This document shows, one piece after another, positions 32,486 to 53,938 of a stretch of DNA of 64,000 bases. Every line of letters starts with the position of its first letter. Position 1 is the first letter of the stretch. Source of the DNA: Actinomycetospora sp. NBRC 106375 (GTDB taxonomy: Bacteria > Actinomycetota > Actinomycetes > Mycobacteriales > Pseudonocardiaceae); contig NZ_BSTS01000013.1 of assembly GCF_030269665.1 (NCBI RefSeq), forward strand, positions 62,001-126,000, written 5' to 3'. The notes beneath the pieces are model-generated. The model searched no databases. It saw only the letters and a list, made by a program, of their open reading frames with translations, and had not been told where the DNA came from. The position numbers were made by a program, and so were the translations under genes.

Positions 32486-33397
32486 GTGTTCTTCCTCAGC
32501 TACGCCCGAGCGGACGAGCCCTCGGTACGGGCCCTTGTCGAGGATCTGCGCCAGCTCGGTGATGTGTGGCGCGACCATCAGATCGCAGGCGGGCAGGCGT
32601 GGTGGCGGGAGATTTTGGGCCAGATTCGAGTGTGTGACCTCTTTGTTTTCGCGCTCTCGGAGGCTTCGCTGAGTTCGGAGGCTTGCCGAGCTGAATTCAA
32701 CTACGCGTATGCCACCCGCCGCCCGATCCTACCGGTGCAGGTGGGCAAAGTCGCGTCTGTCCCACGCCATATCGGTCAGTTTCAGATCGTGGATTATTCC
32801 GTCGGCACCACAACTGGGGGGATCCGCCTCGCGACCGCGGTGCGCGCCTTGGACAGGCAACGCCCGCCACTTCCCAGCCCGTTGCCCCCCGAACCCCAGC
32901 CACCGGAGCCTCGGCCGGTCCACACGCCGTCGCTCTCACGACGTGGCCGAGCAACGGGTGTAGCTCTCGTGTTGCTCTTCGTGCTGCTGGTTGGCGGTAC
33001 GCTTGGCGTGAGCCTGCTCTCCTCCTCGAGCACTAACCCGACGGGTGTCCCAGTCAGCAGCTCCGACCCGGGCGGAGACGCCAGCGAGCCCCGCGCGGCG
33101 ATGTTGGCGGCGGTCCGTGACTACTATGGAGTGGTTACCGTCAACCCAGCTGCGGGCTGGGCTCGCCTCAGTCCTAGCCTGCAGGCACAGACGGGCGGGT
33201 TCTCGATGTACCAGTCGTTCTGGTCGACGGTCACGTCTGCGGTAGTCGTCAACGCCAACGTCATTGATGGGAACACGGTGTCGGCCACGGTGGACTTCTC
33301 GGCGGCAGGTCGCGATCGCGTACGGGAGACCCACGAGCTCCACATGATCCGAAGCGCCGACGGTAGCTGGCTAATCGACGCCGACCGGGTATCGTGA
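32486..33397 (+). CDS. TIR-domain membrane protein with NTF2-like tail
   Basis: 303 residues from GTG 32486 (GGCGAGGAGG upstream). The N-terminal TIR domain VFFLSYARADEPSVRALVEDLRQLGDVWRDHQI has the catalytic-type Glu in SSEACRAEFNYA (about residue 72). A Pro-rich linker and one membrane segment (GVALVLLFVLLVGGTLGVSLL, about 154-175) follow. The C-terminus, MLAAVRDYYGVVTVNPAAGWARLSP, resembles the NTF2-like extracytoplasmic domains seen after actinobacterial kinases. TIR domains commonly cleave NAD+ or make signal nucleotides. It is paralogous to the protein at 33922. GC content is clearly lower than in the flanking chromosome. Confidence 0.82.
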   Translation: MFFLSYARADEPSVRALVEDLRQLGDVWRDHQIAGGQAWWREILGQIRVCDLFVFALSEASLSSEACRAEFNYAYATRRPILPVQVGKVASVPRHIGQFQIVDYSVGTTTGGIRLATAVRALDRQRPPLPSPLPPEPQPPEPRPVHTPSLSRRGRATGVALVLLFVLLVGGTLGVSLLSSSSTNPTGVPVSSSDPGGDASEPRAAMLAAVRDYYGVVTVNPAAGWARLSPSLQAQTGGFSMYQSFWSTVTSAVVVNANVIDGNTVSATVDFSAAGRDRVRETHELHMIRSADGSWLIDADRVS

Positions 33398-33921
33398 TCC
33401 TAGTTCGCCACAGCATTGGCCGAAATCGTGGCGGTCATCGCATCGGTTGTCGGGCCCGTTGGCCAAAACCCGCAGAATAGAAGCACTGCTGGCTGCCTCG
33501 GAAGCGTCAGTTCTTACCGTGACGTGAATTTGACTTGGGTCCTCCCGCAAACGGCCTCAAGGCTCGTTGTTTCGAGGGTATCTGAAGTCTGGAGCGGGCT
33601 CCCACCGATCCGCTTTACTAGACTGACCTCAGTAGCGCATTCTCGAATCCGATGTTGAAGAGGCCTACCGCACCCAAGTGCTCCAGCGAGTTCGCCCTGC
33701 GAGCCGAGATTGCTGGCCGCGCGCCCTGGATGGCAGTGTCATTGGCTACTGTGCCGATCCAGGTGTGAGCCGAGAGTGCTCGCTCGGCCCGAACGTCGGT
33801 CTGTTCGACTCCCACACGCAGTCCCTCGAGGCAGCGCTCTGGACTGTTCAGTCCAATGCTGCCCGCCCTCTGATTACCCGCTGCTACCCTTCTCCGAGCT
33901 CCACAGAGCGGGAGGCCGGAC
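33398..33921 (+). other. Intergenic region of 524 bases between the TIR paralogues
   Basis: No protein-like frame is seen. GGACTGttCAGTCC (33841-33854) is a 6-base-arm dyad about 68 bases before the second TIR gene. The last 60 bases resemble the upstream region of the first TIR gene (CTGCTAC, then a purine-rich ribosome site and CGTGTTCTTCCTCAGC), so the promoter seems to have been duplicated with the gene. Confidence 0.55.
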
Positions 33922-34941
33922 GTGTTCTTCCTCAGCTACGCTCGTGCGGACGAGACCTCGGTCCAAGCTCTTGTGGTGGACCTACGCCAGCTCGGTGACG
34001 TCTGGCTTGATCAGCAAATCGCGGGTGGTCAGGCGTGGTGGCAGGAAATTCTTCGTAATATCAGGGTCGCGGATCTATTTGTCTTTGCCCTCTCAGAGGC
34101 TTCGCTAGCGTCGCCGGCCTGTCGCGCCGAATTCAACTACGCGTTGGCCACAAGGCGGCCGATTCTTCCGGTGCAGGTGGGTGAGGCGGTCGACCTCCCG
34201 CGCGTCGTCGGTGAGCTCCAGATCGTTGACTACCGTGCTGGTACCACGACGGGCGGTGTCCGCCTTGCGACCGCGGTGCGCCGGTTCGATGGATATCGCT
34301 CTCCTCTTCCGAATCCGTTGCCACCCGCCCCTCCGCCGCCGGAGCCGTCGCCGGCGTCTCCCTTGTTCTCGTTACGACGTCGTGCAGCCTTGATCGTGGC
34401 TGGGGTGCTTGCTGCTGTGCTGGCTGCCAGCGGGCTGGCCCTCGCCCGATCGAGCTTCGAGTCGCCCGCGCCCGGAACGTTACCTGCGGCGGGGTCGACG
34501 CCGACGGAGAGCGTGGCGAATGATTCGCACGAGACCGTTCACGTGCCCGACCTCACCGGTCAGAACCGCCAAGTTGCTACGACTACACTCGGGGCCCTAG
34601 GCCTGCGAGTCGCAACGTCCGAAGTCGATGGCGGCGCGCCCGCAGAAACAGTGACTGGCACCTCGCCTGGACCGGGTGCAGCCGTATCGCGGGGCTCGAC
34701 GGTGATCCTGCAAGTCTCACGCGGCAATCGAATTCAAGTACCTTCACTCATTATGATGACGCCGGCTCGAGCCGCATCGGTCCTGTCGCAAGCGGGCTTC
34801 ACTGGCACGCTTACCCAGACTCCGCGGCAGGTTCCCGACACTTCCCAAGTCGGTGTGATCCTGAGTCAGAACCCCGGGGCAGGCACCACGGTAGACGCCG
34901 GTGGCACTATCCAGGTCGTCGTCGGCAGTAACGGACCATAG
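33922..34941 (+). CDS. TIR-domain membrane protein with two PASTA domains
   Basis: 339 residues from GTG 33922 (GGGAGG 6 bases upstream). The TIR domain is nearly identical to the preceding paralogue (VFFLSYARADETSVQALVVDLRQLGDVWLDQQIAGGQAWWQEIL, Glu in SPACRAEFNYA). One membrane segment lies at about residues 153-175. Outside are two PASTA repeats: VPDLTGQNRQVATTTLGALGL to VSRGSTVILQVS, and VPSLIMMTPARAASVLSQAGF to VDAGGTIQVVV. PASTA normally binds peptidoglycan fragments on PknB-type kinases. Here it is joined to TIR instead of a kinase, suggesting cell-wall sensing coupled to NAD+ or signal chemistry. Confidence 0.85.
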   Translation: MFFLSYARADETSVQALVVDLRQLGDVWLDQQIAGGQAWWQEILRNIRVADLFVFALSEASLASPACRAEFNYALATRRPILPVQVGEAVDLPRVVGELQIVDYRAGTTTGGVRLATAVRRFDGYRSPLPNPLPPAPPPPEPSPASPLFSLRRRAALIVAGVLAAVLAASGLALARSSFESPAPGTLPAAGSTPTESVANDSHETVHVPDLTGQNRQVATTTLGALGLRVATSEVDGGAPAETVTGTSPGPGAAVSRGSTVILQVSRGNRIQVPSLIMMTPARAASVLSQAGFTGTLTQTPRQVPDTSQVGVILSQNPGAGTTVDAGGTIQVVVGSNGP

Positions 34942-35861: not shown

Positions 35862-37967
35862 TCACGGATGGTGGGTGAGGAGCACCGCGCGGGCCTGGGT
35901 GGCGATTGTGTCGCGGCACGCCGCAGCGGTGAGCGGGTCGAGGGCGGAGAGGGTCTCGTCGAGCAGGACGACTGCAGGGCGTTGCAGTAGGGCGCGGGCA
36001 GCGTAGACGCGGGTGCGTTCGCCGTCGGAGAGCTGCCATCCGGTTTCGCCGACGTGCTGATTGAGTCCGCCGGGCATGCGGTCGAGCAGTGCGCCCAATT
36101 CAAGGGCACGGCACATGCGTTCCGCCTCGGCCATGTCGTCCAGGGTTGGGGGCCAGCCTCGACCGAGGAGCAGGTTGAACAGCAGCGTGCCGGAAAACAT
36201 GTGGTTGCGGTGATGTTGGGGTACGGCCACGGTTGAGCCGAATCGCAGAATCGTGCCCGTCGAGGGGTTGATCATGCCGGCGAGGGCGGCGATGGCTGTG
36301 CTTTTTCCGCTGCCCGAGGGACCGGAGAGCAGCACCTTCTCCTCAGCACGGATGACTTGGGTGAAGGCGGTCAGGCTGGGGGTCTGCCGGCTCGGGTAGG
36401 TGACGGTGACGTCGGCCGCGTCGATCTCGACGGCAGGCTCGCCCTCGCTTGGCGAGCCGGGGTACTCCGTACCGGGGGGTTCGAGGGTGCGTCTCGCCGT
36501 GGTGGTCCTGTCGGTCGTGGACGTGTCGGCGGCAGCGGTGTCCGGAGCGAGCAGGGTGCGCGCCCGGGTGAGGGCGACCGCGCCGTCGGTGAGGTCGTCG
36601 GCGGCAACGGCCAGCGATTCGAAACCCGAGGCGACGAGCAGGACGATTCCGAGGGTGGCGGCGGCCGCGCCGGGGCCGGGGAACGCGTCGAGCCAGGCAG
36701 CAGCGAGGACCAGCAGGGCGAGGAGGAGCCAGGCCGGGGCGGTGGCGCCGATGAGCCATGCGCCGAGCCGGTCGCAGCCGCGGGCGGTGCGCGCGATCTC
36801 GTCCAGCTCGTCGTCGCCGGCGGAGTCGTCGCCGGCGGGGCGTCCTTGCACCAGCCGTGAGGGGTGCGCGAGGAGTTCTTCGGTGAGCCGGGTGCTCGCG
36901 GTGTGCCGCGCGTCGGTCCAGACCTGCTTGAGACGGAGAAACCGCACACCGAGCGCGAGAGTCACGGCAGCGAAGAGGAGCAGGGTGGCGAGCAGGAACT
37001 GCCCGTCGGTGACGAGCAGCAGCCCGACCGCGCCGAGGAGCAGTTGCGCGAGCCCGAGACCGGCGGCTGCGCCGCCACCGGCCAGGCCGCTCTCGGCGGC
37101 ATCGACATCGAAGGTTCGGCCCAGCACCCAGCCAGGTCCGGCTTCATAGACGTCCTCGGGGTCTAGCCGCACGGCGCGGGCAATGACCCGGCGCTTGGCC
37201 CAACCGCTGACCCGCACGGTCAGCACCCCGAGCGCGAGCTGGGCCACGGCGCGGGACGCGACGCCCGCTGCTGCGAGCGCGACCCACACACCGAGCCAGC
37301 CCAGGTCCTCGCCACCGGCGAGGAGATGGTCGCCAGCCCAGGCCCAGTACCCCCCGAGCAGCAGGTAGCCCATGACGACGAGCAGCACCGTCGCCAGCGT
37401 CGGCAGCACGGCGCCTTCGGCGCGCAGGTGCCGGGCGACAGAAGCAGCGGGGCCGGGGCGTAGTCGCACCGCGGCGCCGTCGGACAGCGGCCGCCCCGAA
37501 CTCAGCGCGGTGGCGGCGCGGTCGCGATGGGCGCGAAGCTCGGGGTAAGCCAAGATAGGGCTGCGACCTTCACCGGCGCGCTCGAGCAGGCTCGCGACCC
37601 AGCTCGATCGGGCCCAGCGCCGCCCGGTGGGCGTGATCAGCTGTGCCCACCCCGCGACGGTGCGGCGCACCATGAGCACCTCGTCGCCCCGCACGCACCA
37701 TCCGGGGCTGAGCTGCTCGATCAGCGCGGCGTTCGGTCGGCCGGCCCACGCCACCGGCACCGCCTCGTATCCGGCCGCGGATGCGGCCGCGACCAGGGCC
37801 CGGTACCCGTCGGCGGCCTCTTCCCGGCGTTCCCGCTGCCCGCCCGAGCCGTCGGTGACCGGTGGTGGCGCTGCTCCGATGAGCGCGGCGAGGGCCTCGG
37901 CGAAGCACGCGACCGGCCAGAGCCACCCAGTGCCGGAGTGCCCGTCGCGCACGTTGTCGCGGCTCAT
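35862..37967 (-). CDS. ABC transporter permease/ATP-binding protein, second half of a peptide exporter pair
   Basis: 701 residues; ATG 37967 overlaps the stop of the C39 ABC gene. The first ~150 residues are a non-peptidase N-terminal domain; residues about 150-440 hold membrane helices (VVMGYLLLGGYWAW, LLLVTDGQFLLATLLLFAAVTLAL, WLLLALLVLAAAW). The ATPase has Walker A LSGPSGSGKSTAIAAL, signature LSDGERTRVYAARALLQ and Walker B AVVLLDETLSALDPL. It stops right at the H-loop (AVLLTHHP), about 40-60 residues earlier than usual. It resembles ABC2 of NHLM/RiPP exporter pairs. The short C-terminus may be natural or a truncation. Confidence 0.85.
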   Translation of the reverse strand: MSRDNVRDGHSGTGWLWPVACFAEALAALIGAAPPPVTDGSGGQRERREEAADGYRALVAAASAAGYEAVPVAWAGRPNAALIEQLSPGWCVRGDEVLMVRRTVAGWAQLITPTGRRWARSSWVASLLERAGEGRSPILAYPELRAHRDRAATALSSGRPLSDGAAVRLRPGPAASVARHLRAEGAVLPTLATVLLVVMGYLLLGGYWAWAGDHLLAGGEDLGWLGVWVALAAAGVASRAVAQLALGVLTVRVSGWAKRRVIARAVRLDPEDVYEAGPGWVLGRTFDVDAAESGLAGGGAAAGLGLAQLLLGAVGLLLVTDGQFLLATLLLFAAVTLALGVRFLRLKQVWTDARHTASTRLTEELLAHPSRLVQGRPAGDDSAGDDELDEIARTARGCDRLGAWLIGATAPAWLLLALLVLAAAWLDAFPGPGAAAATLGIVLLVASGFESLAVAADDLTDGAVALTRARTLLAPDTAAADTSTTDRTTTARRTLEPPGTEYPGSPSEGEPAVEIDAADVTVTYPSRQTPSLTAFTQVIRAEEKVLLSGPSGSGKSTAIAALAGMINPSTGTILRFGSTVAVPQHHRNHMFSGTLLFNLLLGRGWPPTLDDMAEAERMCRALELGALLDRMPGGLNQHVGETGWQLSDGERTRVYAARALLQRPAVVLLDETLSALDPLTAAACRDTIATQARAVLLTHHP

Positions 37968-40570
37968 GGGGTGCTCCCGATAGCGGCCTCAAGGTCGGCT
38001 CGTCGCCATCCCGGCGGGTGTGCGGCGTCGTGGTGGGCGCAGAGGAGGGCGGCGAAGTGCCCGTCGGGGCGTGCGGCGAGCTCGTCGGGGGTGCCGTCCT
38101 CGATGATCCGCCCGGCTTCCATCACCACGACCCGGTCGAAGCGTCGGGCCTCGGTGGGGTCGTGGGTCGCCCACAGCACGGTCGCGCGCGGATGTGCTTC
38201 GAGCAGGCCACTCAGCAGACGTTCGCGGGCGGGGGCGTCGAGACCGCGCGTGGCCTCGTCGGCGATAACCAGGCCTACATCTGTTCGTGCGCCCGGTCGG
38301 GAGACGGGGTGGCCTGGTTCCGGCTCGACCACGGTCCGCGCGGCGCGCAGCAGCTGGCCCTCGCCGCCGGAGAGGCGTCGCCCACCGGGGCCGACGGGGC
38401 GGTCGCGGGCGTCGGCGAGTCGGCTCAGGACTTTGTCGGCTCCGACTCGTGCGGCTTCCGCGTCGATGATCTCGCGCGAAGGTGGTCGGGGAAGGCTGAT
38501 GTTGGTGTCGGGATCGCGGTCCCACAGGTCGGTCCGTCCGGTCAGCCACACCGCCCGTCGCCGCACCGCCGCGGGATCGTCGGCCACCCGTGTCGGACCA
38601 ACGTGCACTGCCCCGGCGACGAGCTCGGCGAGTCCGACCACGGCGTCGAGCAGCGTCGATTTCGCCGACCCGGAGCGGCCGAGCACTGCGACCCGTTGTT
38701 CCGCCGGCACATCCAGGGTCAGCTGGTCGATCACGACGGTGCCACCCCGTTGTACCGACACCTGATCGCAGTACACCGGCATCGGCCCCTCGCCGGTGAC
38801 CGGTGACGTCGGCGTGGACTCGGTGGTGGCGTCGAGCAGGTCCCGGAAGCGCAGCAGGCGATTGCGGGCATCGGGCAGCAGCCGCCCGACGGTGATGATC
38901 TCATCGATGGCCACCGGCACCGAGAGGATCAGCAGCAGCAGCATCAGCTTCGTCGCCACGGGCGCGGACATCGTGGCGACCCAGCCCAGCGCGGCCGCGG
39001 CCGGCAGCAGCACCGCCAGCCCGATCGCCGCTTCGAGCAGCGCGCTCGCGCGGACCCGTGACGTCGACGCGGTCTGCCATTGGGCCAGTGATCGGCCCTG
39101 TTCCCAGCGCAGCGCCGTTCGAGCGTCGTGGTGGGCCAGGGTGGAGAGTCCCAGCAGTCCGTCGAGCAGGTAGCGGCTCAGGACCCCGGCGATAGTGCGC
39201 GACCGCAGGTCGAGCTCGGCGACCCGCGACCAGCCCCAGCGAACCCCCAGCACCGGCAGCGCTACCAGCCCCGCGAGCGCCGGCACCGCCTGAGGTATCA
39301 GCCACAGCACCGCCACCACCGCGGTCAAGCCGGTGGCCGCAGCGCGCGCCGCGACGCAGAGCAGCCACGGCAGATTCCGGGCCCGGTGCAGCCCGTGCAC
39401 CCGCTCCACCAGATCCGACGCGGGACGGGTCGCGACCCACCACGGCGCCACCGCCCCCAACCGCTGCGACCACCGGGCCCGCAGGTCCTGCTCCAGCCCG
39501 CGACCCGCCCTGCGAGCCGCGGCCGCGCCGGCCCACCCAACCAGGACCTCACCGAGCACCACCGCGACGGCGAGCCAGAATCCGCGACCGCTGCCGGCCA
39601 CGACATCGCGCAGCGCGAGCGCCTCACCGACCACGCCCGCCCCGGCGAGCACCGCAGCGGCCAGCGCCCAGCGCAGCGAGCGCCACGGCCACAGCATCGA
39701 CAGCGCCGCCCGCCACGGACCGGACCGGGCCGGCGCCTCCGTACCTGGCGTCGTGGCGCCCGTCTCCCCGTGTCGTGCCGGACTCGCTGTGGAGACGTAG
39801 GCCCCGGTGACTCGCACGGCGACCCCGCCGCGGAACTCGACGAGCTCCTCCTCATCATCGCCGTCCGGGGCAGGAGGCAGCCGACGCATGGAGCGGTCCT
39901 CGTCATCGAGGTCCTCGGGATGCGCGGCTAGACGGTCGACGAACGCACCGACCTTGGCCGCCGGCAGCGCGCTGGCCTCGCGCAGCCGCGCGGCCACCCG
40001 CACCGCGGCGTCCAGCGTCGACAGATCGTCCGGACCGCTGGCGACCGCCGCGGACACGGTGGCGTTCGCTGCGAGCTCGTCGACGCCGATCCCGACCAAA
40101 CGCTCGAGCAGCGCGCCACGTCCCTGCTCGCCGCTGGCCCAGGCGAACCACGCCTCGAGGGGCACCGAGAGGCGGTGCCGGTAGACCTGCGAGACGAACT
40201 GCTTCTCGGCCACGACACGACGGCCCTGCGCGGGGTCCATGATCTCCAGCCGGCCCCGCGAGAGCCGCCGCCAAATCACAACGAAATGGGTCGCTCCGTC
40301 CGGCAGCTCCACGACCACCACGGCGGGCAGCACCGCCGCCGCCGCGCGTACCAGGTGATCGACCGGGACCACCACCTGCTCGCACGGCAACCCCAGCTCA
40401 CCGATCACCAGCTCGAGCGCGTCGATAGACGTGCCGTCCACATCGGTCGCACACCGCGCCCGCAAGGTCTCCACATCGACCTCGGCGCCACAGCCACGCA
40501 ACAACGCTGCCGCGGCCGCTGGACCGCAGTCCATCGCCGAGAGCTGAACGACTTCCGGTACTCGCGCCAT
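37964..40570 (-). CDS. C39 peptidase-containing ABC exporter (PCAT)
   Basis: 868 residues from ATG 40570. The N-terminal C39 peptidase has VPEVVQLSAMDCGPAAAAALL with oxyanion Gln9 and catalytic Cys15, DGTSIDALELVIGELGL, the His in GATHFVVIWRR and the Asp in LEIMDPAQG. After an extended linker (about residues 150-300) come membrane helices (from about 310). The ATPase has Walker A LGRSGSAKSTLLDAV, signature LSGGEGQLLRAA, Walker B LVIADEATRGLDA and H-loop WATHDP. PCATs cut leader peptides after a double glycine and export the cargo. The eight AGG micro-ORFs lie directly upstream on the same strand. Another ATG at 40606 is possible. Confidence 0.9.
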   Translation of the reverse strand: MARVPEVVQLSAMDCGPAAAAALLRGCGAEVDVETLRARCATDVDGTSIDALELVIGELGLPCEQVVVPVDHLVRAAAAVLPAVVVVELPDGATHFVVIWRRLSRGRLEIMDPAQGRRVVAEKQFVSQVYRHRLSVPLEAWFAWASGEQGRGALLERLVGIGVDELAANATVSAAVASGPDDLSTLDAAVRVAARLREASALPAAKVGAFVDRLAAHPEDLDDEDRSMRRLPPAPDGDDEEELVEFRGGVAVRVTGAYVSTASPARHGETGATTPGTEAPARSGPWRAALSMLWPWRSLRWALAAAVLAGAGVVGEALALRDVVAGSGRGFWLAVAVVLGEVLVGWAGAAAARRAGRGLEQDLRARWSQRLGAVAPWWVATRPASDLVERVHGLHRARNLPWLLCVAARAAATGLTAVVAVLWLIPQAVPALAGLVALPVLGVRWGWSRVAELDLRSRTIAGVLSRYLLDGLLGLSTLAHHDARTALRWEQGRSLAQWQTASTSRVRASALLEAAIGLAVLLPAAAALGWVATMSAPVATKLMLLLLILSVPVAIDEIITVGRLLPDARNRLLRFRDLLDATTESTPTSPVTGEGPMPVYCDQVSVQRGGTVVIDQLTLDVPAEQRVAVLGRSGSAKSTLLDAVVGLAELVAGAVHVGPTRVADDPAAVRRRAVWLTGRTDLWDRDPDTNISLPRPPSREIIDAEAARVGADKVLSRLADARDRPVGPGGRRLSGGEGQLLRAARTVVEPEPGHPVSRPGARTDVGLVIADEATRGLDAPARERLLSGLLEAHPRATVLWATHDPTEARRFDRVVVMEAGRIIEDGTPDELAARPDGHFAALLCAHHDAAHPPGWRRADLEAAIGSTP

Positions 40571-40694: not shown

Positions 40695-40769
40695 TCACGC
40701 ATCCTGGCCCCGCCCGTCGGCCTGCGGAAGACGTCGGCCACCGGCCTGCACGTTCGTCTGTGACTCCAC
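40695..40769 (-). CDS. Micro-ORF peptide 8 of the AGG array (longest, 24 residues)
   Basis: GTG 40769 (an ATG lies one codon upstream) to TGA 40695. It begins MESQTNVQAGGRRLPQ and continues ADGRGQDA. GGGAGG stands 8 bases before GTG, the spacing used by the other copies. It is the copy nearest the C39 exporter gene and has an extended C-terminus. Confidence 0.7.
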   Translation of the reverse strand: MESQTNVQAGGRRLPQADGRGQDA

Positions 40770-40920
40770 CATGCTCACCTCCCTTCAGCGCCGTCGTGGT
40801 TCGCTGCGGACAACGGCGGTTCGCTCAAGGCACTGTCGACAGTCGACCTGAAGGGCCGTCTGTTCCGCCTTGCCGCCCACTTCGTCAACCGCTCGATAAT
40901 TCGCCATACGCAGCCGATTC

Positions 40921-40968
40921 TCACGGGAATCGCTTACCGCCGGCCAGCACGTCCGTCCGGGTCGTCAC
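40921..40968 (-). CDS. Micro-ORF peptide 7 of the AGG array (MTTRTDVLAGGKRFP)
   Basis: GTG to TGA, 15 residues, with GGAGG exactly 8 bases upstream. The core keeps T-x-V-x-A-G-G and [KR]-R-F-P but differs at N6D and Q8L, the most diverged core of the tandem set. It is 97 bases from copy 6. A 40-codon frame between copies 7 and 8 (containing VGGKAEQTA) has no ribosome site and may be a ruined copy. Confidence 0.75.
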   Translation of the reverse strand: MTTRTDVLAGGKRFP

Positions 40969-41017
40969 GCCATCCACCTCCTTTCCCGGGTTAGACCTGA
41001 CGCTCAAGCCCTCATCT

Positions 41018-41065
41018 CTACGGGAACCGCCTCCCGCCGACCTGCACGTTCGTCTGCGCAGTCAC
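41018..41065 (-). CDS. Micro-ORF peptide 6 of the AGG array (MTAQTNVQVGGRRFP)
   Basis: GTG to TAG, 15 residues, GGAGG 8 bases upstream. It carries VGG in place of AGG before the RRFP tail; the rest matches the consensus. Copies 5, 6 and 7 are spaced 97 bases apart, start to start. Confidence 0.75.
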   Translation of the reverse strand: MTAQTNVQVGGRRFP

Positions 41066-41114
41066 ATCCATCACCTCCCGTTCCTGCAGGATCTGGCGCT
41101 CGAGCTCCGGGGCT

Positions 41115-41162
41115 TTACGGGGACCGTCTGCCGCCGGCCTGCACGTTCGTCTGGGTCGTCAT
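41115..41162 (-). CDS. Micro-ORF peptide 5 of the AGG array (MTTQTNVQAGGRRSP)
   Basis: The consensus member: ATG to TAA, 15 residues, with AAGGAGG 8 bases upstream. It differs from copy 4 only at Ser/Ala in the tail and by silent changes (AAC/AAT, AGA/AGG). Silent changes with conserved protein argue for selection on the peptide. Confidence 0.8.
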   Translation of the reverse strand: MTTQTNVQAGGRRSP

Positions 41163-41212
41163 GACCTTCACCTCCTTCCCTGCGCGAAGTATGATGCTCA
41201 AGCTCCTGTGCT

Positions 41213-41260
41213 TTACGGGGCCCGCCTGCCGCCGGCCTGCACATTCGTCTGGGTCGTCAC
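41213..41260 (-). CDS. Micro-ORF peptide 4 of the AGG array (MTTQTNVQAGGRRAP)
   Basis: GTG to TAA, 15 residues, with GGGAGGGAGGG upstream. Near identical to copy 5. The tail after the double glycine is RRAP. Confidence 0.8.
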   Translation of the reverse strand: MTTQTNVQAGGRRAP

Positions 41261-41361
41261 GTCTTCCCTCCCTCCCTAAGCAATTCGTTCCTAGATAACT
41301 GACGGTCCGGTTGTGCTGCGGCGAGCGGCGCTTCGCGGAGCCGACGTCAGGACTTTCCTAT

Positions 41362-41412
41362 TCAGGAGCCGACACGTCGCCCGCCGGCACAGACGCTCGT
41401 CCGAGTCGTCAC
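41362..41412 (-). CDS. Micro-ORF peptide 3 of the AGG array (MTTRTSVCAGGRRVGS)
   Basis: GTG to TGA, 16 residues, GAGAGGTGG upstream. It keeps T-x-V-x-A-G-G-R-R but has Cys at the Gln position and a VGS end instead of xP. It is separated from copy 4 by 152 bases. Confidence 0.7.
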   Translation of the reverse strand: MTTRTSVCAGGRRVGS

Positions 41413-41455
41413 GCCATTCACCACCTCTCGTCTCCCTCGTCGGATCGGACCCATC

Positions 41456-41503
41456 TCAGGCGGTGTATCGGCCACCGGCCCGCACGTTCGTCAGCCTTGT
41501 CAC
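41456..41503 (-). CDS. Micro-ORF peptide 2 of the AGG array (MTRLTNVRAGGRYTA)
   Basis: GTG to TGA, 15 residues, GGGAGG 7 bases upstream. Tail RYTA lacks the final Pro and the second Arg. Start-to-start distance to copy 1 is 86 bases. Confidence 0.72.
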   Translation of the reverse strand: MTRLTNVRAGGRYTA

Positions 41504-41541
41504 GCCGTCTCCTCCCTTAATCATCGGATCGCGGACCGCCG

Positions 41542-41589
41542 TCAGGCGCTCTTTCGGCCGCCGGCCTGCACGTTCGTCAGCGTGGTCAC
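41542..41589 (-). CDS. Micro-ORF peptide 1 of the AGG array (MTTLTNVQAGGRKSA)
   Basis: GTG to TGA, 15 residues, GGAGG 8 bases upstream (an in-frame ATG two codons before GTG sits too close to that site). It is the promoter-proximal copy. The 208 bases between it and the divergent kinase gene should hold the array promoter. Tail is RKSA. Confidence 0.75.
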   Translation of the reverse strand: MTTLTNVQAGGRKSA

Positions 41590-41797
41590 ATCCATCACCT
41601 CCTCCATCTCGGTCACTTGGGAGCTGATCTCCCTGGACGGGCAGAACTGTGTCTGGCCGCGTTGAAGCTCTGCTGAAATCGATCGGGGAGGGTCAGGCCG
41701 AGATCGTGGGCGCACGCAACGTGTCCGGTTGATCACCGTCAGAGCGGTTCCGGCGACTGCTCCCGTATAGCCGATGTCGTCGCTACGATCACGCGTT

Positions 41798-43315
41798 ATG
41801 GGGGCGACCACAGGCCGCGTGCTGGGCGGATACCGCCTCGACGGCGTGATCGGCCGGGGTGGGATGGGCACGGTCTACCGCGGGGAGCAGGTGGCTCTCG
41901 GCCGTCCGGTCGCGATCAAAGTGATCTCCGCGGGACTCGTGGACGATCCGGGATTCCGCGAGCGTTTCGCGCGGGAGGCGCTCGCCGCGGCCGCGGTCGA
42001 GCACCCCAACATCCTGCCGGTCCACGACGCCGGGGAGATCGACGGCGAGCTCTACCTGGCGATGCGGTACGTCCACGGTTCGGACGCCGCCGCCGAGTTG
42101 CGCCGCGGCGGAGCGATAGGGCCCGACCGTGCGCTACGGGTGGTCGCGGACGTCGCGGCCGCACTCGACGCTGCCCACGGTGCCGGTCTGGTGCACCGTG
42201 ATGTGAAGCCAGCGAACATTCTGCTCGACGCCGAACTCGACCGGGCCTACCTCACCGATTTCGGGCTGGCCCGCCGCAGCGGCTCGCACAGCAGCGTGAA
42301 CTCTGGATGGGCGGGCACGGTGCACTACATCGCGCCCGAACAGATCAAGGGCGACGACATCGACGCGGGCGCCGACGTGTACGCCCTGGCGTGCACTGCT
42401 TTCGAGCTGCTCACCGGTCGTCGCCCGTTCGTGCGGGACAACGACCTCGCTGTGTTGTGGGCCCACGTGAGCGATCCGCCGCCGTCGGCCCGATCGGTCA
42501 ACCCCGACCTGCCCGCCGTTGTCGATGAGGTCATCGGCCGCGGGATGGCGAAGACTTCAGAGCAGCGCTACGCCTCGGCCGGCGACCTGTCCGCCGCCCT
42601 CACCGCCGCACTCGCAGGCGACGGCCCGCCCCGACTCCCCGCCACCGCGGCCATCTCGGCCGCACGGCCGTGCGCCCCGAAGGCACGCACGTCCATCGCG
42701 GCACTGTGCGGCCTGACCTACGCCGCCGGCGTGACCGTGCAGGCCTCCCTTCCCATTCCGCAGTCGGTGAACGTCACCGCGAACCCGAGCGCGGCGGGCT
42801 TGATGGCGTTCTTCACCCAGGAGCGAGGCTTGGCCCTCGCCCAAGCAGGAACCGCCATCGTCGCCGCTGGTGCGCTGCTCGCGTTCCTGTGGACGCTGGA
42901 CACCGCAGGTATCGCAGGCCGCCTGTCGACGCGAGGAGCGCGCGCCGTGCGCACCCTCGGTGGGTTGGCCTTCGGTCTGGAGGCCGTCGCGCTCATCGCC
43001 GAGGTCGCCCCGAGCTTCGGGCTCGCGGCCCGCGGGCGCGGCGATCTCGCCGCCGGATTCTGGGTCGTCGCCGGTCACGTGCACGCCGCGGCCGCGGTCG
43101 CGCTCGCGGCCGTCATGGTCCTGCTCGTGCGGGCCACGACCTCGCGGGTGCTGTCCGTTGGGGCCGCTGTCGTGGCGTGCGGGCTGCTCGTCGAAGCCGT
43201 GATGGAGCCACGGCTGTTCGCTGCGGGGCGTGCTGGGACCGTCCTGCTGGTCGTCTGGGTGGCGAGTGTGTCCGTCGCCGAACTGGTCCGCTCGCGGGAG
43301 CTGGCTGATGTCTGA
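41798..43315 (+). CDS. Membrane Ser/Thr protein kinase (PknB-type catalytic domain)
   Basis: 505 residues from ATG 41798. Kinase domain is complete: GRGGMGTVYRG, Lys in VAIKVI, HRDVKPANILL (His about 133), DFGLARR (Asp about 154), APEQIKGDDIDAGADVYALAC. The C-terminal half (about 300-500) is not PASTA but about six membrane segments (GLTYAAGVTVQ, IVAAGALLAFLWTL, AAAAVALAAVMVLLVRA and others). TACGAT nine bases before ATG looks like a -10 box, so the transcript may be leaderless. It overlaps the next membrane gene by 8 bases and diverges from the peptide array. Confidence 0.88.
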   Translation: MGATTGRVLGGYRLDGVIGRGGMGTVYRGEQVALGRPVAIKVISAGLVDDPGFRERFAREALAAAAVEHPNILPVHDAGEIDGELYLAMRYVHGSDAAAELRRGGAIGPDRALRVVADVAAALDAAHGAGLVHRDVKPANILLDAELDRAYLTDFGLARRSGSHSSVNSGWAGTVHYIAPEQIKGDDIDAGADVYALACTAFELLTGRRPFVRDNDLAVLWAHVSDPPPSARSVNPDLPAVVDEVIGRGMAKTSEQRYASAGDLSAALTAALAGDGPPRLPATAAISAARPCAPKARTSIAALCGLTYAAGVTVQASLPIPQSVNVTANPSAAGLMAFFTQERGLALAQAGTAIVAAGALLAFLWTLDTAGIAGRLSTRGARAVRTLGGLAFGLEAVALIAEVAPSFGLAARGRGDLAAGFWVVAGHVHAAAAVALAAVMVLLVRATTSRVLSVGAAVVACGLLVEAVMEPRLFAAGRAGTVLLVVWVASVSVAELVRSRELADV

Positions 43316-44084
43316 GTCGAGAGACGACGCGGCCACGGAGACCTCCGGCGGCCGTTGGCCTGCTCCGGACACCGGTGGCGCGACGTCCGGAGAGGAGCAA
43401 CCGCCCGCCAGACTGACCTCGGGCGGTGGCGGCCTTGGGTTCCTCATTCCCGCGGCAGGCGGATTGATCCTGGCGGCGAGTGTCCTCGCCACCAACTTTC
43501 TGCCGTTCCCGCTGGTCGAGATGGACGACCCGGTGCATCCCACCCCGTCGGAGTGGGAGCGGTTCTTCGCGATCGCCGGGGGTGCGCAGCTGCGCCTCAC
43601 GTTGGTCAATTCCGTCGGGATCGTGTTCCAATTCGCGTTTCTCGTCGTGCTGGCCCGGGTCGTCGCTCCAGCGGGCGGAGTCCGCGCGTTCGTGCTGGTC
43701 GCAGCCGGCGCCTTGGGTTCGTTGTTGGCGCTCGCCTCGCTGGCAGTGTTCACCGCTCCCGTAGTCATGACCGTCTCTGGCTCCGACATGCAGGCCCTCG
43801 ACGACCTCTCCCAGTTCGCTGATGCGGTGAGTTTGGTCCTGGCCGGAGTCGAGGTGGCGCTGGCGGGGTTGGCCATTCTGGCTGGTCGTAGCCTTCCGCG
43901 TTGGCTCGGCTGGGCCTCGCTCCCGTTGGGGGTACTCCTCGCGGGACTCTCTGGCTCGCAGCTGCTGGCGGGTGAGGTGCTGTTCCCCGACGGGCGGAAC
44001 CTCGCCTTCGCCGGGTTCCTGATCTGGAATGTCGCGGCGAGCGTGTGCCTGCTCGTGCACGGCCCGGCGCGCTCACCTCGATGA
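43308..44084 (+). CDS. Multi-pass membrane protein of unknown function
   Basis: 258 residues. After a disordered 45-residue N-terminus come about six membrane segments: FLIPAAGGLILAASVLATNF, SVGIVFQFAFLVVLARVV, AFVLVAAGALGSLLALASLAVF, and three more up to NVAASVCLLVHG. There is no conserved catalytic motif. It is translationally coupled to the kinase (ATG inside the kinase end) and to the SARP-FHA gene (ATGA). It may be a sensor or partner of the kinase's own membrane half. Confidence 0.7.
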   Translation: MSESRDDAATETSGGRWPAPDTGGATSGEEQPPARLTSGGGGLGFLIPAAGGLILAASVLATNFLPFPLVEMDDPVHPTPSEWERFFAIAGGAQLRLTLVNSVGIVFQFAFLVVLARVVAPAGGVRAFVLVAAGALGSLLALASLAVFTAPVVMTVSGSDMQALDDLSQFADAVSLVLAGVEVALAGLAILAGRSLPRWLGWASLPLGVLLAGLSGSQLLAGEVLFPDGRNLAFAGFLIWNVAASVCLLVHGPARSPR

Positions 44085-45481
44085 TCGAGTTCCGCGTCCT
44101 CGGGCAGCTCGAGGTCGTGCGCGAGGGGGAGAGCCTGAACCTGCGCGGCCCCAAGCAACGGTCGGTGCTGGCGATGCTGCTGCTCAACGCCGGTCGGGTC
44201 GTCGCCGTACACGAGCTCGTCGACGGCATCTGGGGCGAGCGCCCGCCCGACACGGCGGAGAACACGGTGCAGGTGTACGTCTCGACGTTGGCTCGCACCC
44301 TCGAACCCGACCGTCCCGCTCGTGATCGCGAGCTGATCCGTACCCGAGGTGGCGGCTACGTTCTCGAGCTCGGCGCGCACCCTCTGGATCTGCAAATGTT
44401 TCTCACCGAGGTTGCCGATGCTCACGCCCTGCTCCAGCGCCACCGCCATGCGGAGGCATCGGCGTTGTTCGAGCGGGCTCTGAGCCGGTGGCGAGGCCCG
44501 GCGCTGGGAGATCTCGGCGACCAGCCGTTCGCGGCCACAGAGATCCCGGCAATCGAGGAAAGCCGGCTCGCCGCTATCGAAGCGAGCCTCGAGGCCGAGA
44601 TGGCCCTTGGACGGCATGGCTCGGCCATCCCTCGCCTGACACGCCTTGTCGACCAGCATCCGTTGCGCGAGCGGTTCCATGCCCAGCTGATGACCGCGCT
44701 CTATGCCGCTGAGCGCCAGGCCGATGCTCTCGAGGTCTATCGGCGGGCCCGCGCCGTGCTCCACGACGAGCTCGGCGTTGACCCCGGTGAGCGCCTGAAC
44801 CACCTGCACCAGGCGATCCTGCACGGCGACGTCATCGATGCCGTGGTTCTCCCCGCCAAGGATGGAGCGACCGTCGACTTCCGGGACAGCGACGGGCAGA
44901 CCCGACAGATGACGCTCGACCCGGCACGGACGGTGACCATCGGCCGGCGCTCGACCAACGACATCTGCCTCGCCGGTGACTCCCAGGTCTCCCGCAGCCA
45001 CGCGCGACTCGAGCCGGGCGTCGACGGTTGGGGCCTCGTCGACGACGGGCCGTCCCACAATGGGACGTTCGTCAATGGCGACCGCGTCGAGGGTAGCTGT
45101 CGGCTTCACGACGGCTCGGTCATCCGGGTCGGGCGAACGGTCTTGATCTTCCGGGAGGCCGCACCCGAGCTCTCCGTCGTCGTAGGGGAGTCGAGCCCGA
45201 CCAGCGCCGCGTCGCTGCCCCGCCACGCCGACGTCGACGAACCGTCCCGAGACCTACTCCGAGCGCTACGAGACGAGCTTTCATCGGATGTCACCAGGGC
45301 GACCTCACACCAGCTCTCCCAGCGACTGGCGGCCCGCACCGGACTGACCCTCGAGGCGGTCTCGTCTACGCTCGCCCGGCTGCGACGACAGTTCGACGTC
45401 GCCGACACTCCCACGCCCGACCAAGATCACCTCCTCCTTGACCGGGCCCGCGCCCTTGGACTGCTCCGACTCGAGACCTGA
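44081..45481 (+). CDS. SARP-family regulator with FHA domain (EmbR-like)
   Basis: 466 residues. A winged-helix DNA-binding domain (MIEFRVLGQLEVVREGESLNLRGPKQRSVLAMLLLNAGRVV) and a BTAD domain (to about 250) are followed by an FHA domain (about 285-355: TVTIGRRSTNDICLAGDSQVSRSHARLE, LVDDGPSHNGTFVNGDRV) with phosphothreonine-binding Arg, Ser and Asn. A C-terminal extension with a predicted HTH-like region follows (HQLSQRLAARTGLTLEAVSSTLARLRRQF). EmbR in mycobacteria has the same SARP-FHA order and is phosphorylated by a kinase encoded next to it, which supports kinase control here. Confidence 0.88.
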   Translation: MIEFRVLGQLEVVREGESLNLRGPKQRSVLAMLLLNAGRVVAVHELVDGIWGERPPDTAENTVQVYVSTLARTLEPDRPARDRELIRTRGGGYVLELGAHPLDLQMFLTEVADAHALLQRHRHAEASALFERALSRWRGPALGDLGDQPFAATEIPAIEESRLAAIEASLEAEMALGRHGSAIPRLTRLVDQHPLRERFHAQLMTALYAAERQADALEVYRRARAVLHDELGVDPGERLNHLHQAILHGDVIDAVVLPAKDGATVDFRDSDGQTRQMTLDPARTVTIGRRSTNDICLAGDSQVSRSHARLEPGVDGWGLVDDGPSHNGTFVNGDRVEGSCRLHDGSVIRVGRTVLIFREAAPELSVVVGESSPTSAASLPRHADVDEPSRDLLRALRDELSSDVTRATSHQLSQRLAARTGLTLEAVSSTLARLRRQFDVADTPTPDQDHLLLDRARALGLLRLET

Positions 45482-45614: not shown

Positions 45615-45665
45615 GTGACCGCAACGACGAACGTCAAAGCTGGCCCGAGGATCAGCCGATTCTGA
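45615..45665 (+). CDS. Micro-ORF peptide, KAGP type (MTATTNVKAGPRISRF)
   Basis: GTG to TGA, 16 residues, with GAGGGGAGGA just upstream. TNVKAG is shared with the AGG array (TNVQAG), which links the two subfamilies directly. It lies 133 bases after the SARP-FHA gene on the same strand. Confidence 0.65.
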   Translation: MTATTNVKAGPRISRF

Positions 45666-45928: not shown

Positions 45929-45976
45929 ATGTTCACGCGGACCGAGATCAAGGCAGGACCGTTCAGGCGCTCCTGA
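45929..45976 (+). CDS. Micro-ORF peptide, KAGP type (MFTRTEIKAGPFRRS)
   Basis: ATG to TGA, 15 residues, with GGGAGAGGGGG upstream. The core T-E-I-K-A-G-P and the F-R-R tail match the peptides at the other end of the cassette (35576 and 35677), ten kilobases away. Confidence 0.62.
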   Translation: MFTRTEIKAGPFRRS

Positions 45977-46220: not shown

Positions 46221-47579
46221 TCATGCCCGCGGTTGCCCCCAGGCCTCCATGGTGGAGGGCGTTACACCTGCGGCGCGGGCGGCGATCGACGCGAGGTAAC
46301 CGTTGAGGTAGTCGACGAGGTCGGCGGTGTCGTCGTCGAACGACTGCCCTCCGAGACGACAGGCGTTCCGGCTCGCCAGCGGAGCGAGCGCTTCGGGAAG
46401 GGCGTCGGCGCGAGGCATCGCCGCGCCGTCGACTAGCACCGGGATGACGAGGAGCCGCGCGCGGAGGCCGTGTTCGATCTCGATCCGGACGAGGTCGGCA
46501 GGGTCGTCGAGGCGGCGCCGCCCCCTGCGCCCGGCTCGCAGCCATCCGCGCCCGATCATCACCAGCATCACGGCGCTGCGCGCGATCGCGTTCCTGAGGT
46601 CGTCCCGGAATTCCGCTCCGGGTCGGATCGACCGCACGTCGAGGAAGACCTGGGGATCACCGAGCCGCTGCCGGAGGAGGTTATCGAGGCGCTCGGCGGC
46701 ACGGTCGGTGTCGGACCGGCGGTAGCTGATGAAGACCGCCGCTGTCGGCGCGCGCAGTGCCGAGCGGGCCGCGGAGGCCACGTCGTGAGCCGACCGGAAT
46801 CGACCCTCCGGCGTCTTGGCCATTCCTCGGGCGATGACCTGGTCGAAGGCCCTCAACGCCGGCGAGGTGTCGGACGGACGCGGCGGAGGCGCATCGAGAT
46901 GGGCCCGCACGACGTCCAGGGCTGCCTCGCCGCGGAAAGGCCGGCAACCGGAGAGACATTCGTAGAGGACACACGTCAGTTCGTAGATGTCGGCGCGGTG
47001 ATCTACCGGCCTGTCCTGCACTTCCTCGGGTGCGATGTAGAGCTTGGCGGCAAAGTAGCCCACCGTCTGGTCGTCCCGATGGCCCACACCGTGGCCGAGC
47101 CCGAAATCGATGAGGTAGGCGAAGCCGGACAGACCGCCTCCTCGCGCATGCGCCAGCATGATGTTGGCCGGCTTGACATTGCGGTGCAGCAGCCCGGCGC
47201 TGTGCGCGGCCCCCAACGCTGCGGCAACTTGCTCGACCACGCTCACGCTCATCTCCGGCGTGAGGCCGCGCCCGGCGATCGCCTTCTCGAGGTCGACCCC
47301 GTCTACCAACTGCATCTCGATGAACAAGCGCCCGTCGATCTCGCCGTAGGTATGGGTCGGGACCACGTGGGGCTCGTTCAACCGGCACGCGATCTCCGCT
47401 TCGCGGGCGAACCGGGCACGGAACTCGTCGTCGGCGGTCAGCTCCTCCCGGAGCACCTTCAGGGCGACCGTCCGGTCGTTCAGGCTTGTATCGACCGCGC
47501 GCCAGACCTCCCCAGAGCTGCCCCGACCGAGGAGGGCGTCGAGCCTGTATCGCCCGAACCGTTCTCCGACCGCGACCAC
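46221..47579 (-). CDS. Pseudokinase-TIR fusion protein
   Basis: 452 residues from GTG 47579. The PknB-like domain (about 8-265) has GRGSSGEVWRA, Lys in VALKVL and DFGLGHG, but the catalytic loop reads LLHRNVKPANIM: the HRD aspartate is Asn (about residue 134, codon AAT). The C-terminal TIR domain (about 285-430) reads VFISYRRSDTDRAAERLDNLLRQRLGDPQVFLDV, then SAVMLVMIGRGWL and the Glu in LVRIEIEHGL. No membrane segment is seen. The kinase part probably senses or binds nucleotide, and TIR is the effector. It is convergent with the micro-ORFs. Confidence 0.85.
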   Translation of the reverse strand: MVAVGERFGRYRLDALLGRGSSGEVWRAVDTSLNDRTVALKVLREELTADDEFRARFAREAEIACRLNEPHVVPTHTYGEIDGRLFIEMQLVDGVDLEKAIAGRGLTPEMSVSVVEQVAAALGAAHSAGLLHRNVKPANIMLAHARGGGLSGFAYLIDFGLGHGVGHRDDQTVGYFAAKLYIAPEEVQDRPVDHRADIYELTCVLYECLSGCRPFRGEAALDVVRAHLDAPPPRPSDTSPALRAFDQVIARGMAKTPEGRFRSAHDVASAARSALRAPTAAVFISYRRSDTDRAAERLDNLLRQRLGDPQVFLDVRSIRPGAEFRDDLRNAIARSAVMLVMIGRGWLRAGRRGRRRLDDPADLVRIEIEHGLRARLLVIPVLVDGAAMPRADALPEALAPLASRNACRLGGQSFDDDTADLVDYLNGYLASIAARAAGVTPSTMEAWGQPRA

Positions 47580-51024: not shown

Positions 51025-51296
51025 TTCCTAACGTCCTTCCCGAGTGCGGAGCGTGATCGACCTCGACTATGCCCCGCCAGTTCGAGACGAACAGCATCCG
51101 AAAGAGTGATGCCGCAAGCGATCGACCCCGTGAAGGTCGCATTTGTACACTGACAGTCACATCTCCTCGTGGTGTCGGCCTCTCATCGGGTTGGCCTACC
51201 TCCTGGCTGACGTAGCGCTGACAACGGGGTGACGACGGAGTGACGCCGGCCCGCGAGCGTGCCCCGACATCAGGCGCCACCGGCCCGAGGAGCCTC

Positions 51297-53390: not shown

Positions 53391-53412
53391 ACACGGACAG
53401 GAGGGATGCCCG

Positions 53413-53931
53413 ATGGCCGAGTTCGCGGTGAACGCGCGGCGCTTCGACCCGTACAAGAACTTCAAGTTCAAGGTCAAATGGGATGGGCGCTACATCGCCG
53501 GGGTGAGCAAGGTCAGCGCCCTGCGACGCACCACGGAGGTCGTGCGGCACCGGCACGGGGGCGATCCCAGCAGCAGCCGCAAGTCGCCCGGCCGCACCGA
53601 GTACGAGGCCGTCACCCTCGAGCGCGGGGTGACCCACGATCCCGAGTTCGAGCGGTGGGCGAACAAGGTGTGGAACTGGGGTGCGGCCGTGGGCTCGGAG
53701 ACGTCGCTCGCCGACTTCCGCAAGGACATCATCGTGGAGGTCCTCAACGAGGCCGGTCAGGTCGCGCTGTCCTACACGCTCTACCGGTGCTGGGTCTCGG
53801 AGTTCCACGCCCTGCCCGATCTGGACGCGAACGCCAACGCGACCGCGATCCAGTCGCTGAAGCTGGAGAACGAGGGCTGGGAGCGCGACGTCGCGGTGAT
53901 CGAGCCGGCCGAGCCGACGTTCGAGCCGTGA
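53413..53931 (+). CDS. eCIS/phage-tail-type inner tube protein
   Basis: 172 residues of the T4 gp19-like tube family: FDPYKNFKFKVKWDGRYIAGVSKVSALRRTTEVVRHRHGGDPSSSRKSPGRTEYEAVTLERGVTHDPEFERW, then FRKDIIVEVLNEAGQVALSYTLYRCWVSEFHALPDLDANANATAIQSLKLENEGWERD. This matches Afp1/Pvc1-type tube proteins in length and order. It is 22 bases after the sheath gene. Confidence 0.92.
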   Translation: MAEFAVNARRFDPYKNFKFKVKWDGRYIAGVSKVSALRRTTEVVRHRHGGDPSSSRKSPGRTEYEAVTLERGVTHDPEFERWANKVWNWGAAVGSETSLADFRKDIIVEVLNEAGQVALSYTLYRCWVSEFHALPDLDANANATAIQSLKLENEGWERDVAVIEPAEPTFEP

Positions 53932-53938
53932 GCCGTCG

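What the first reader, a model, noticed from the sequence alone, without database searches (positions are those of the whole stretch)
40695..41589. Array of eight micro-genes encoding near-identical 15-24-residue peptides feeding a C39 exporter
Seen: on the minus strand, eight separate reading frames each begin after a strong ribosome site (usually GGAGG at 8 bases) and encode M-T-x-x-T-N-V-Q-A-G-G-R-R-x-P or close variants. The copies differ at many silent positions and between genes, yet the core is kept, so selection acts on the peptide. Directly downstream, on the same strand, are a C39-peptidase ABC exporter and a second ABC protein. Known: C39 peptidases cut after a double glycine. Inference: cleavage after AGG would free 4-5-residue tails (RRSP, RRAP, RRFP, KRFP, RKSA, RYTA, RRVGS), a variable set of tiny peptides, or the peptides are whole signals or RiPP substrates. 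Standard gene callers skip frames this short. I cannot rule out that the family is already described.
Basis: partly seen in the sequence, partly recalled or inferred. Interest (0 to 1): 0.95.

Follow-up and report, generated by a model that had tools for sequence, protein, structure and literature searches.

The report
Micro-gene arrays feeding a peptide exporter
Around a predicted peptide exporter this genome carries eleven tiny genes that share a ten-residue start pattern followed by different short tails, and the same pairing of exporter and tiny genes recurs in several other bacterial phyla; the exporter likely cuts off the start and releases the tails, which would act as short signals.

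Summary
The eight micro-genes are real, at the stated place, and not chance. The locus thus holds eleven genes with a ten-residue leader, M-x-x-x-T-x-[VI]-x-[AV]-G, and a short, mostly basic tail. The adjacent C39 exporter pair belongs to a family found in many phyla. Beside its members, or elsewhere in their genomes, lie the same ten-residue leaders: 25 micro-genes in Microbulbifer, 12 in a Terriglobia genome, four with identical peptides in Minicystis. The motif also sits in long NHN-repeat proteins and in two microviridin-like precursors beside MvdC/MvdD-like ATP-grasp enzymes. So it is most simply the export and cleavage signal of this exporter family, and the micro-genes are precursors reduced to signal plus cargo. 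The conserved edge is A-G, not A-G-G. Export, cleavage site and function are inferred; signalling is my best guess. Over half of the exporter loci show no precursor nearby. None of the twelve longer members I could scan passes a Pfam or NCBIfam cut-off, and my paper searches found no description. New variant of a known kind (C39-exported peptides).

The parts
41542..41589 (-). micro-gene 1, MTTLTNVQAG-GRKSA
   Evidence: sequence; ribosome site
41456..41503 (-). micro-gene 2, MTRLTNVRAG-GRYTA
41362..41412 (-). micro-gene 3, MTTRTSVCAG-GRRVGS
41213..41260 (-). micro-gene 4, MTTQTNVQAG-GRRAP
41115..41162 (-). micro-gene 5, MTTQTNVQAG-GRRSP
41018..41065 (-). micro-gene 6, MTAQTNVQVG-GRRFP
40921..40968 (-). 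micro-gene 7, MTTRTDVLAG-GKRFP
40695..40769 (-). micro-gene 8, MESQTNVQAG-GRRLPQADGRGQDA (an ATG one codon further up, 40772, is also possible and would make the leader 11 residues)
45615..45665 (+). micro-gene 10 (missed), MTATTNVKAG-PRISRF
45929..45976 (+). micro-gene 11 (missed), MFTRTEIKAG-PFRRS
37964..40570 (-). exporter subunit 1: C39 peptidase + ABC ATPase (membrane part between them by comparison), 868 aa; Q, C, H, D of the active site present
   Evidence: Pfam PF03412, PF00005 (run on the longer 925-aa frame); catalytic columns
35862..37967 (-). exporter subunit 2: ABC protein, 701 aa, whose N-terminal domain looks like a degenerate C39-like (papain-like) domain without the active-site Cys
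41774..43315 (+). Ser/Thr protein kinase (C-terminal part membrane-like by eye), divergent from the array; possible regulator
   Evidence: PF00069; role inferred
44045..45481 (+). SARP-type regulator (Trans_reg_C + BTAD) with FHA domain, directly upstream of micro-genes 10 and 11; possible regulator
   Evidence: role inferred
46221..47579 (-). Ser/Thr kinase with C-terminal TIR domain; possible part of the regulation
   Evidence: role inferred

Best explanation
Each of the eleven micro-genes encodes a ten-residue start ending in A-G (V-G in one) followed by a tail of 4 to 14 residues, and the adjacent C39 ABC exporter pair likely recognises that start as a leader, would cut it off after A-G, and would export the short, mostly basic tails, which would act as extracellular peptide signals. 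Shown by sequence: the genes, the leader length, the intact C39 active site, and recurrence of leader plus exporter in other phyla. Inferred: that the exporter handles these peptides; that the cut is after A-G (after A-G-G is the alternative for the array of eight); that subunit 2's dead C39-like domain holds the substrate, as proposed for HlyB. Guessed from neighbours: a kinase (41774) and a SARP-FHA regulator (44045) switch the array on in an AfsK/AfsR-like way, and the tails signal to other cells.
For: Leader plus exporter recur: a strict leader rule with ribosome site finds 66 micro-ORFs in 25 of 85 sequences (84 exporter loci plus the window) against 0 or 1 in each of 10 shuffles (with a looser rule 78 against 7-20). 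A profile made only from public NHN-repeat proteins hits ORFs in 26 of 84 exporter loci at E<0.001 (19127 ORFs), and none in 27 unrelated ABC-exporter loci at E<1 (995 ORFs, a smaller control). In Microbulbifer rhizosphaerae (5.3 Mb) all 26 leader matches lie in one 17-kb stretch upstream of the exporter on one strand, control 0. In 12 other exporter genomes 19 matches occur in 5, all on the contig of the exporter by coordinates, control 0; 7 genomes have none although the translated scan finds micro-ORFs at their loci. Leader length was free between 8 and 13 in the scan yet is 10 in 68 of 76 micro-ORFs, and in 33 of 41 without the window and Microbulbifer. Four Minicystis genes encode the same 19-aa peptide with only synonymous differences and unrelated upstream DNA. 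In two relatives the motif sits in microviridin-like precursors beside ATP-grasp enzymes, that is, in peptides of a known processed class. Catalytic H and D are kept in 81 of 81 C39 rows (Q and C are near-invariant too, but the rows were picked by motifs that hold them). HlyD adaptor in 71 of 85 sequences, not found in the window, its four family relatives and Micromonospora, as expected if these have a single membrane.
Against: No transcription, translation, cleavage or peptide was observed. Single window array peptides score weakly against the family profile (best 12.0 bits, E 0.19); only the array as a whole does well (hhalign score 17.1, best of 200 column permutations 13.9). 46 of 84 exporter loci, and 19 of the 48 that are 14 kb or longer, show no precursor by this test (one of the 19, L037, has one by eye). 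In Minicystis micro-genes lie at least half a megabase from the exporter, so co-location is not universal. The leader lacks canonical C39 leader features: A at -2, a hydrophobic -7 in only 2 of 11 window genes, no -12. The signalling role has no direct evidence; the regulator neighbours are mostly not shared by the relatives (TIR in the window only; a kinase in 17 of 85).
Confidence: 0.68

Rival explanations
1. The exported tails are antimicrobial peptides (microcin-like) instead of signals; the array is a set of variants that targets neighbours.
For: C39 exporters carry antimicrobial or quorum-signalling peptides (PMC6363468 abstract). Tails are basic in the window and vary inside the array.
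Against: Cargo of 4-6 residues is very short for a bacteriocin (recalled); I recognised no immunity-like gene among the 22 neighbour clusters shared by five or more loci, but only 7 of them were tested with Pfam; four identical copies in Minicystis suggest dose, not diversification.
Confidence: 0.2
2. The micro-genes are precursors of an enzyme-modified RiPP whose enzyme is encoded nearby or elsewhere; the tail is the core.
For: The same motif lies in two microviridin-like precursors with ATP-grasp enzymes; some tails have Cys and Trp; a 621-aa protein of unknown family accompanies eight exporter loci, proteobacterial where classified, and could be an enzyme.
Against: Two MvdD-like queries find only those 2 of 85 sequences, not the window; no known RiPP enzyme among the window frames tested with Pfam or among the 7 of 22 shared neighbour clusters tested.
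Confidence: 0.17
3. The frames act in the cell: as regulatory upstream frames or small intracellular peptides, and the exporter carries something else.
For: Eight of them precede the exporter genes; no export was shown; many exporter loci have no such gene nearby.
Against: Genes sit on both strands and on both sides of the exporter, not in front of one gene; leader pattern kept across phyla; synonymous-only changes between copies.
Confidence: 0.08
4. The array is decaying or chance repeat DNA.
For: The tight DNA core (84% identical over 21 bases) could be a DNA repeat.
Against: Frame-specific constraint (ratio 0.43 against 1.15 and 1.14), unrelated flanks, Arg codons switching between CGA and AGG/AGA at the same position, and shuffles.
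Confidence: 0.02

Closest known systems
AMS/PCAT exporters with double-glycine leaders (LahT, ComA, PCAT1)
   Same: C39 peptidase fused to ABC exporter; catalytic residues present; hydrophobic residue at -4 and G at -1 if the cut is after A-G
   Different: leader only 10 residues, A (once V) at -2, mostly polar or basic -7, no -12; cargo of mostly 4-10 residues; micro-genes in arrays; exporter is a pair with one apparently dead C39-like domain
NHLM/NHLP bacteriocin exporters (TIGR03796/TIGR03797)
   Same: pair of ABC proteins, one with active C39 (recalled for NHLM)
   Different: scores far below both cut-offs (108.3 of 853.3; 68.2 of 709.4 bits); no long leader
Microviridin/graspetide precursors (NF033738) with MvdC/MvdD
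   Same: two exporter relatives carry a precursor with a PFF[AT]RFL element followed by T-x-I-K-A-G and a core-like end
   Different: window has no ATP-grasp hit and its genes have no PFFARFL part
HlyB C39-like domain (CLD)
   Same: subunit 2's N-domain models as a papain-like fold and lacks the Cys
   Different: here paired with an active C39 subunit; HlyB exports a large protein

Membership tests
AMS/PCAT exporter (subunit 1) | C39 peptidase domain plus ABC ATPase in one chain | tested here: met
   PF03412 60.3 bits (cut-off 22), PF00005 44.4 bits (cut-off 25)
AMS/PCAT exporter (subunit 1) | catalytic Gln, Cys, His, Asp | tested here: met
   all four in the window; over 81 rows H and D in 81, C in 81, Q in 80 with one gap (Q and C partly by construction of the set)
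AMS/PCAT exporter (subunit 1) | cleaves and exports its substrate | not testable with these tools
   needs biochemistry
Canonical double-glycine leader | G-G, G-A or G-S at -2/-1 | tested here: not met
   the array of eight has A/V-G-G, but the three KAGP genes and 53 of 55 distinct micro-ORFs outside the window have A/V-G followed by a residue other than G
Canonical double-glycine leader | hydrophobic -4, -7, -12 | tested here: not met
   after A-G: -4 is V/I (met), -7 is L in 2 of 11 window genes and Q, R, K or T in the rest, -12 does not exist (rule from PMC6363468 sections 8-9)
NHLM/NHLP system | NCBIfam equivalog cut-offs of TIGR03796 and TIGR03797 | tested here: not met
   108.3 of 853.3 (subunit 1) and 68.2 of 709.4 bits (subunit 2)
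Graspetide/microviridin | ATP-grasp maturase in the cluster | tested here: not met
   tblastn with two MvdD-like proteins: 2 of 85 sequences, not the window
The micro-precursor family proposed here | ten-residue leader M-x3-[TS]-x-[VIL]-x-[AV]-G behind a ribosome site, near a C39 exporter of this family | tested here: met
   11 genes in the window; recurrence
The micro-precursor family proposed here | single peptides score significantly against the family profile | tested here: inconclusive
   four array ORFs at 11.0-12.0 bits, E 0.19-0.39; array profile 17.1 against at most 13.9 in 200 permutations

The most novel reading that the evidence does not exclude
A cross-phylum class of peptide secretion in which genes of about 15-25 codons, made of nothing but a ten-residue export signal and a cargo of mostly 4-10 residues, are multiplied into arrays of up to 25 genes, so that one exporter releases a whole set of tiny unmodified peptides: the smallest dedicated secretion substrates known, and a combinatorial peptide language that gene callers do not see.
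Probability: 0.45. Interest if true: 0.9.

Novelty: new variant of a known kind. Interest (0 to 1): 0.8.

Why it matters
If right, many soil and aquatic bacteria (Acidobacteriota, Planctomycetota, Chloroflexota, Pseudomonadota, Myxococcota and the window's group) export families of tiny peptides whose genes are too short for usual annotation. The leader rule given here makes them findable, gives a minimal C39 substrate to test, and links orphan exporters to their cargo. It would also show an export signal shared by apparently unmodified micro-peptides and by microviridin-like RiPPs.

Full report
What is there. On the minus strand between 41589 and 40695 lie eight frames of 15-24 codons behind clear ribosome sites, reading M-T-x-x-T-N-V-Q-A-G-G-R-R-x-P or variants. 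Directly downstream come a C39-peptidase ABC protein (start judged to be ATG 40570 from its relatives) and a second ABC protein. A scan of the window with a leader rule that let the stretch before the motif vary found three more on the plus strand: 35677 (MSTKTTIKAGPCRR), 45615 (MTATTNVKAGPRISRF) and 45929 (MFTRTEIKAGPFRRS) (the second was first seen through the family profile). In all eleven the leader, taken to end at A-G (V-G in gene 6), is ten residues long (for gene 8 if the GTG at 40769 is the start). With that rule the window has 11 genes with ribosome sites against a shuffle mean of 0.06, maximum 1, in 100 shuffles.

Genome-wide specificity. In the 6.8-Mb genome the DNA pattern of the array type gives 10 places, 8 in this locus and 2 elsewhere each with one mismatch. 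The pattern T-x-[VI]-K-A-G-P gives 4 places: the 3 plus-strand micro-genes and 1 inside a 477-codon frame that I recall as looking like ribosomal protein L3. Reversed-pattern controls 0.

Selection. Over the seven codons T..GG the eight array genes have pS 0.275 and pN 0.117 (ratio 0.43); the other two frames give 1.15 and 1.14; flanks are 31% identical. The residue after A-G-G is Arg in seven of eight, written as CGA, AGG or AGA.

The precursor family. Four relatives in the window's family carry the motif in short repeat peptides (such as ELVVRTDVTAGG...NQHSE), and an acidobacterial locus has long proteins of repeats K-V-K-T-N-V-K-A-G-G-x3-N-H-N-Q. A search with one of these found 277 proteins; of the 120 listed, those with a name are 'hypothetical' but for one 'CxxC motif-containing protein', and one carries a Pfam domain. 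In these 120, 379 units have G after A-G in only 134. A profile of these units, searched in 19127 ORFs of 84 exporter loci, gives hits in 26, 31, 36 and 39 loci at E<0.001, 0.01, 0.1 and 1; 27 unrelated ABC loci (995 ORFs) gave none. Many hits are free-standing micro-genes: 25 in Microbulbifer rhizosphaerae (MKAKSQVKAGPELQIHG and variants), 12 in a Terriglobia bacterium (7 by the census, 5 more read on the same contig: MKTKTGVKAGPTGYPW, MKIKTNIKAGPGCPSCRL...), three identical ones in an Anaerolineae bacterium (MKVKTNVKAGSVNWG), Burkholderiales ones with tails ending SRC[VA]G[IA]. Strict rule plus ribosome site: 66 in 25 of 85 sequences against 0-1 per shuffle in 10 shuffles; looser rule plus ribosome site 78 against 7-20; without ribosome site 200 against 130-163 (the rules were written after seeing the family, so the shuffles test chance, not independence). 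The leader is ten residues in 68 of 76 (T/S, V/I/L and A/V-G were demanded by the search and length within 8-13; K/R at -3, in 53 of 64 distinct ones, and at -7, in 52 of 64, were not). By profile E<0.1 or strict rule, 38 of 84 loci, and 29 of 48 loci of 14 kb or more, have a recognised precursor.

Where no precursor is near. In 10 genomes of exporter loci without a convincing nearby precursor a leader pattern gives 17 matches in 6 genomes, control 0; I judge 12 of the 17 to be micro-genes with ribosome sites. Minicystis rosea has 9 matches, including four tandem genes that all encode MKTKTSVKAGFNPQPDPPG; the 18 pairwise differences among them are all synonymous, and upstream DNA is 14-39% identical. 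A Terriglobia peptide (L048) has the same F-N-P-Q-P-D-P-P-G stretch.

An anchor in known biology. Two Planctomycetota relatives (L043, L084) have, at the same locus, precursors with a PFF[AT]RFL element followed by I-K-T-D-I-K-A-G or V-K-T-G-I-K-A-G. L043's precursor passes the NCBIfam cut-off for microviridin/marinostatin precursors (47.8 bits, cut-off 26), L084's has no family hit; both loci have ATP-grasp proteins closest to MvdC/MvdD, though below those cut-offs. So the motif sits in peptides of a class known to be processed. This fits the reading that it is the exporter's own signal, and that micro-genes are precursors without any enzyme-binding part.

Cut site. In LahT150, Lys or Asp at -4 abolished cleavage, Leu -7 and -12 mattered, and the 13 last leader residues sufficed (PMC6363468; I read the abstract and sections 5, 8, 9 and 10). 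A cut after A-G-G would put Q, R, C or L at -4 in the array and mostly K/R in relatives; a cut after A-G puts V or I there. I therefore predict A-G, but A at -2 is outside the double-glycine rule, so this exporter would be a divergent one.

Mechanism. Translation of the micro-genes, binding of the leader by the C39 domain (and perhaps by the dead C39-like domain of subunit 2), cleavage, export of the tail. A HlyD adaptor accompanies the pair in 71 of 85 sequences; it was not found in the window, its four family relatives and Micromonospora, nor in eight other loci, several of them cut short by contig ends. A kinase is found in 17 of 85 and a TPR protein in 16 of 85. In the window a kinase, a SARP-FHA regulator and a kinase-TIR protein surround the array; an AfsK/AfsR-like control is a guess from recall (for PMC10936776 I saw only the listing and the start of its abstract).

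Known models. Twelve longer members (six, six including window gene 8) were scanned against Pfam and NCBIfam: none passes a curated cut-off. Most micro-peptides are below the tool's 20-residue minimum. (The L043 microviridin-like precursor is the exception among motif carriers.)

Literature. Ten searches, the last on the regulators, found no description of the family in what was listed. The library lacks most subscription journals. For PMC8939145 (graspetides) I saw passages and section 5: the motif letters I searched are absent from its text, but it says that variants of the GG motif occur, and its figures and tables of precursors were not seen.

Verdict. It is a new variant of C39-exported peptides with an unusual minimal precursor and a wide distribution. 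The substrate role is well supported by comparison; the cut site and function are inferred.

Noticed in passing
51240-61476: Genes of an extracellular contractile injection system: tail sheath, Pvc16-like N-terminal domain, AAA ATPase, eCIS core domain.
   Followed up: no
32486-34941: Two plus-strand TIR-domain genes, the second with PASTA domains.
   Followed up: no
L051, L073, L078, L083 (micro-ORFs): Burkholderiales micro-precursors end in SRC[VA]G[IA], a conserved C-terminal motif on otherwise variable tails.
   Followed up: no
L047:2580-4442 (-) and kin in 7 other loci: A 621-aa protein without any Pfam or NCBIfam hit accompanies the exporter in proteobacterial loci.
   Followed up: partly
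L048:3613 and L150 (Minicystis): The stretch FNPQPDPPG after the leader is identical in an acidobacterial and a myxobacterial micro-gene.
   Followed up: partly
P0121, P0135: Some NHN-repeat proteins end in a second, canonical-looking leader end (LSDKDLEQVAGG, LSDKDLEQAAGG), as if two export signals were fused.
   Followed up: no
L154 (Minicystis, 9.35 Mb): A repeat protein of KAG units with QHNETLVR lies far from the exporter in the same genome as free micro-genes.
   Followed up: no
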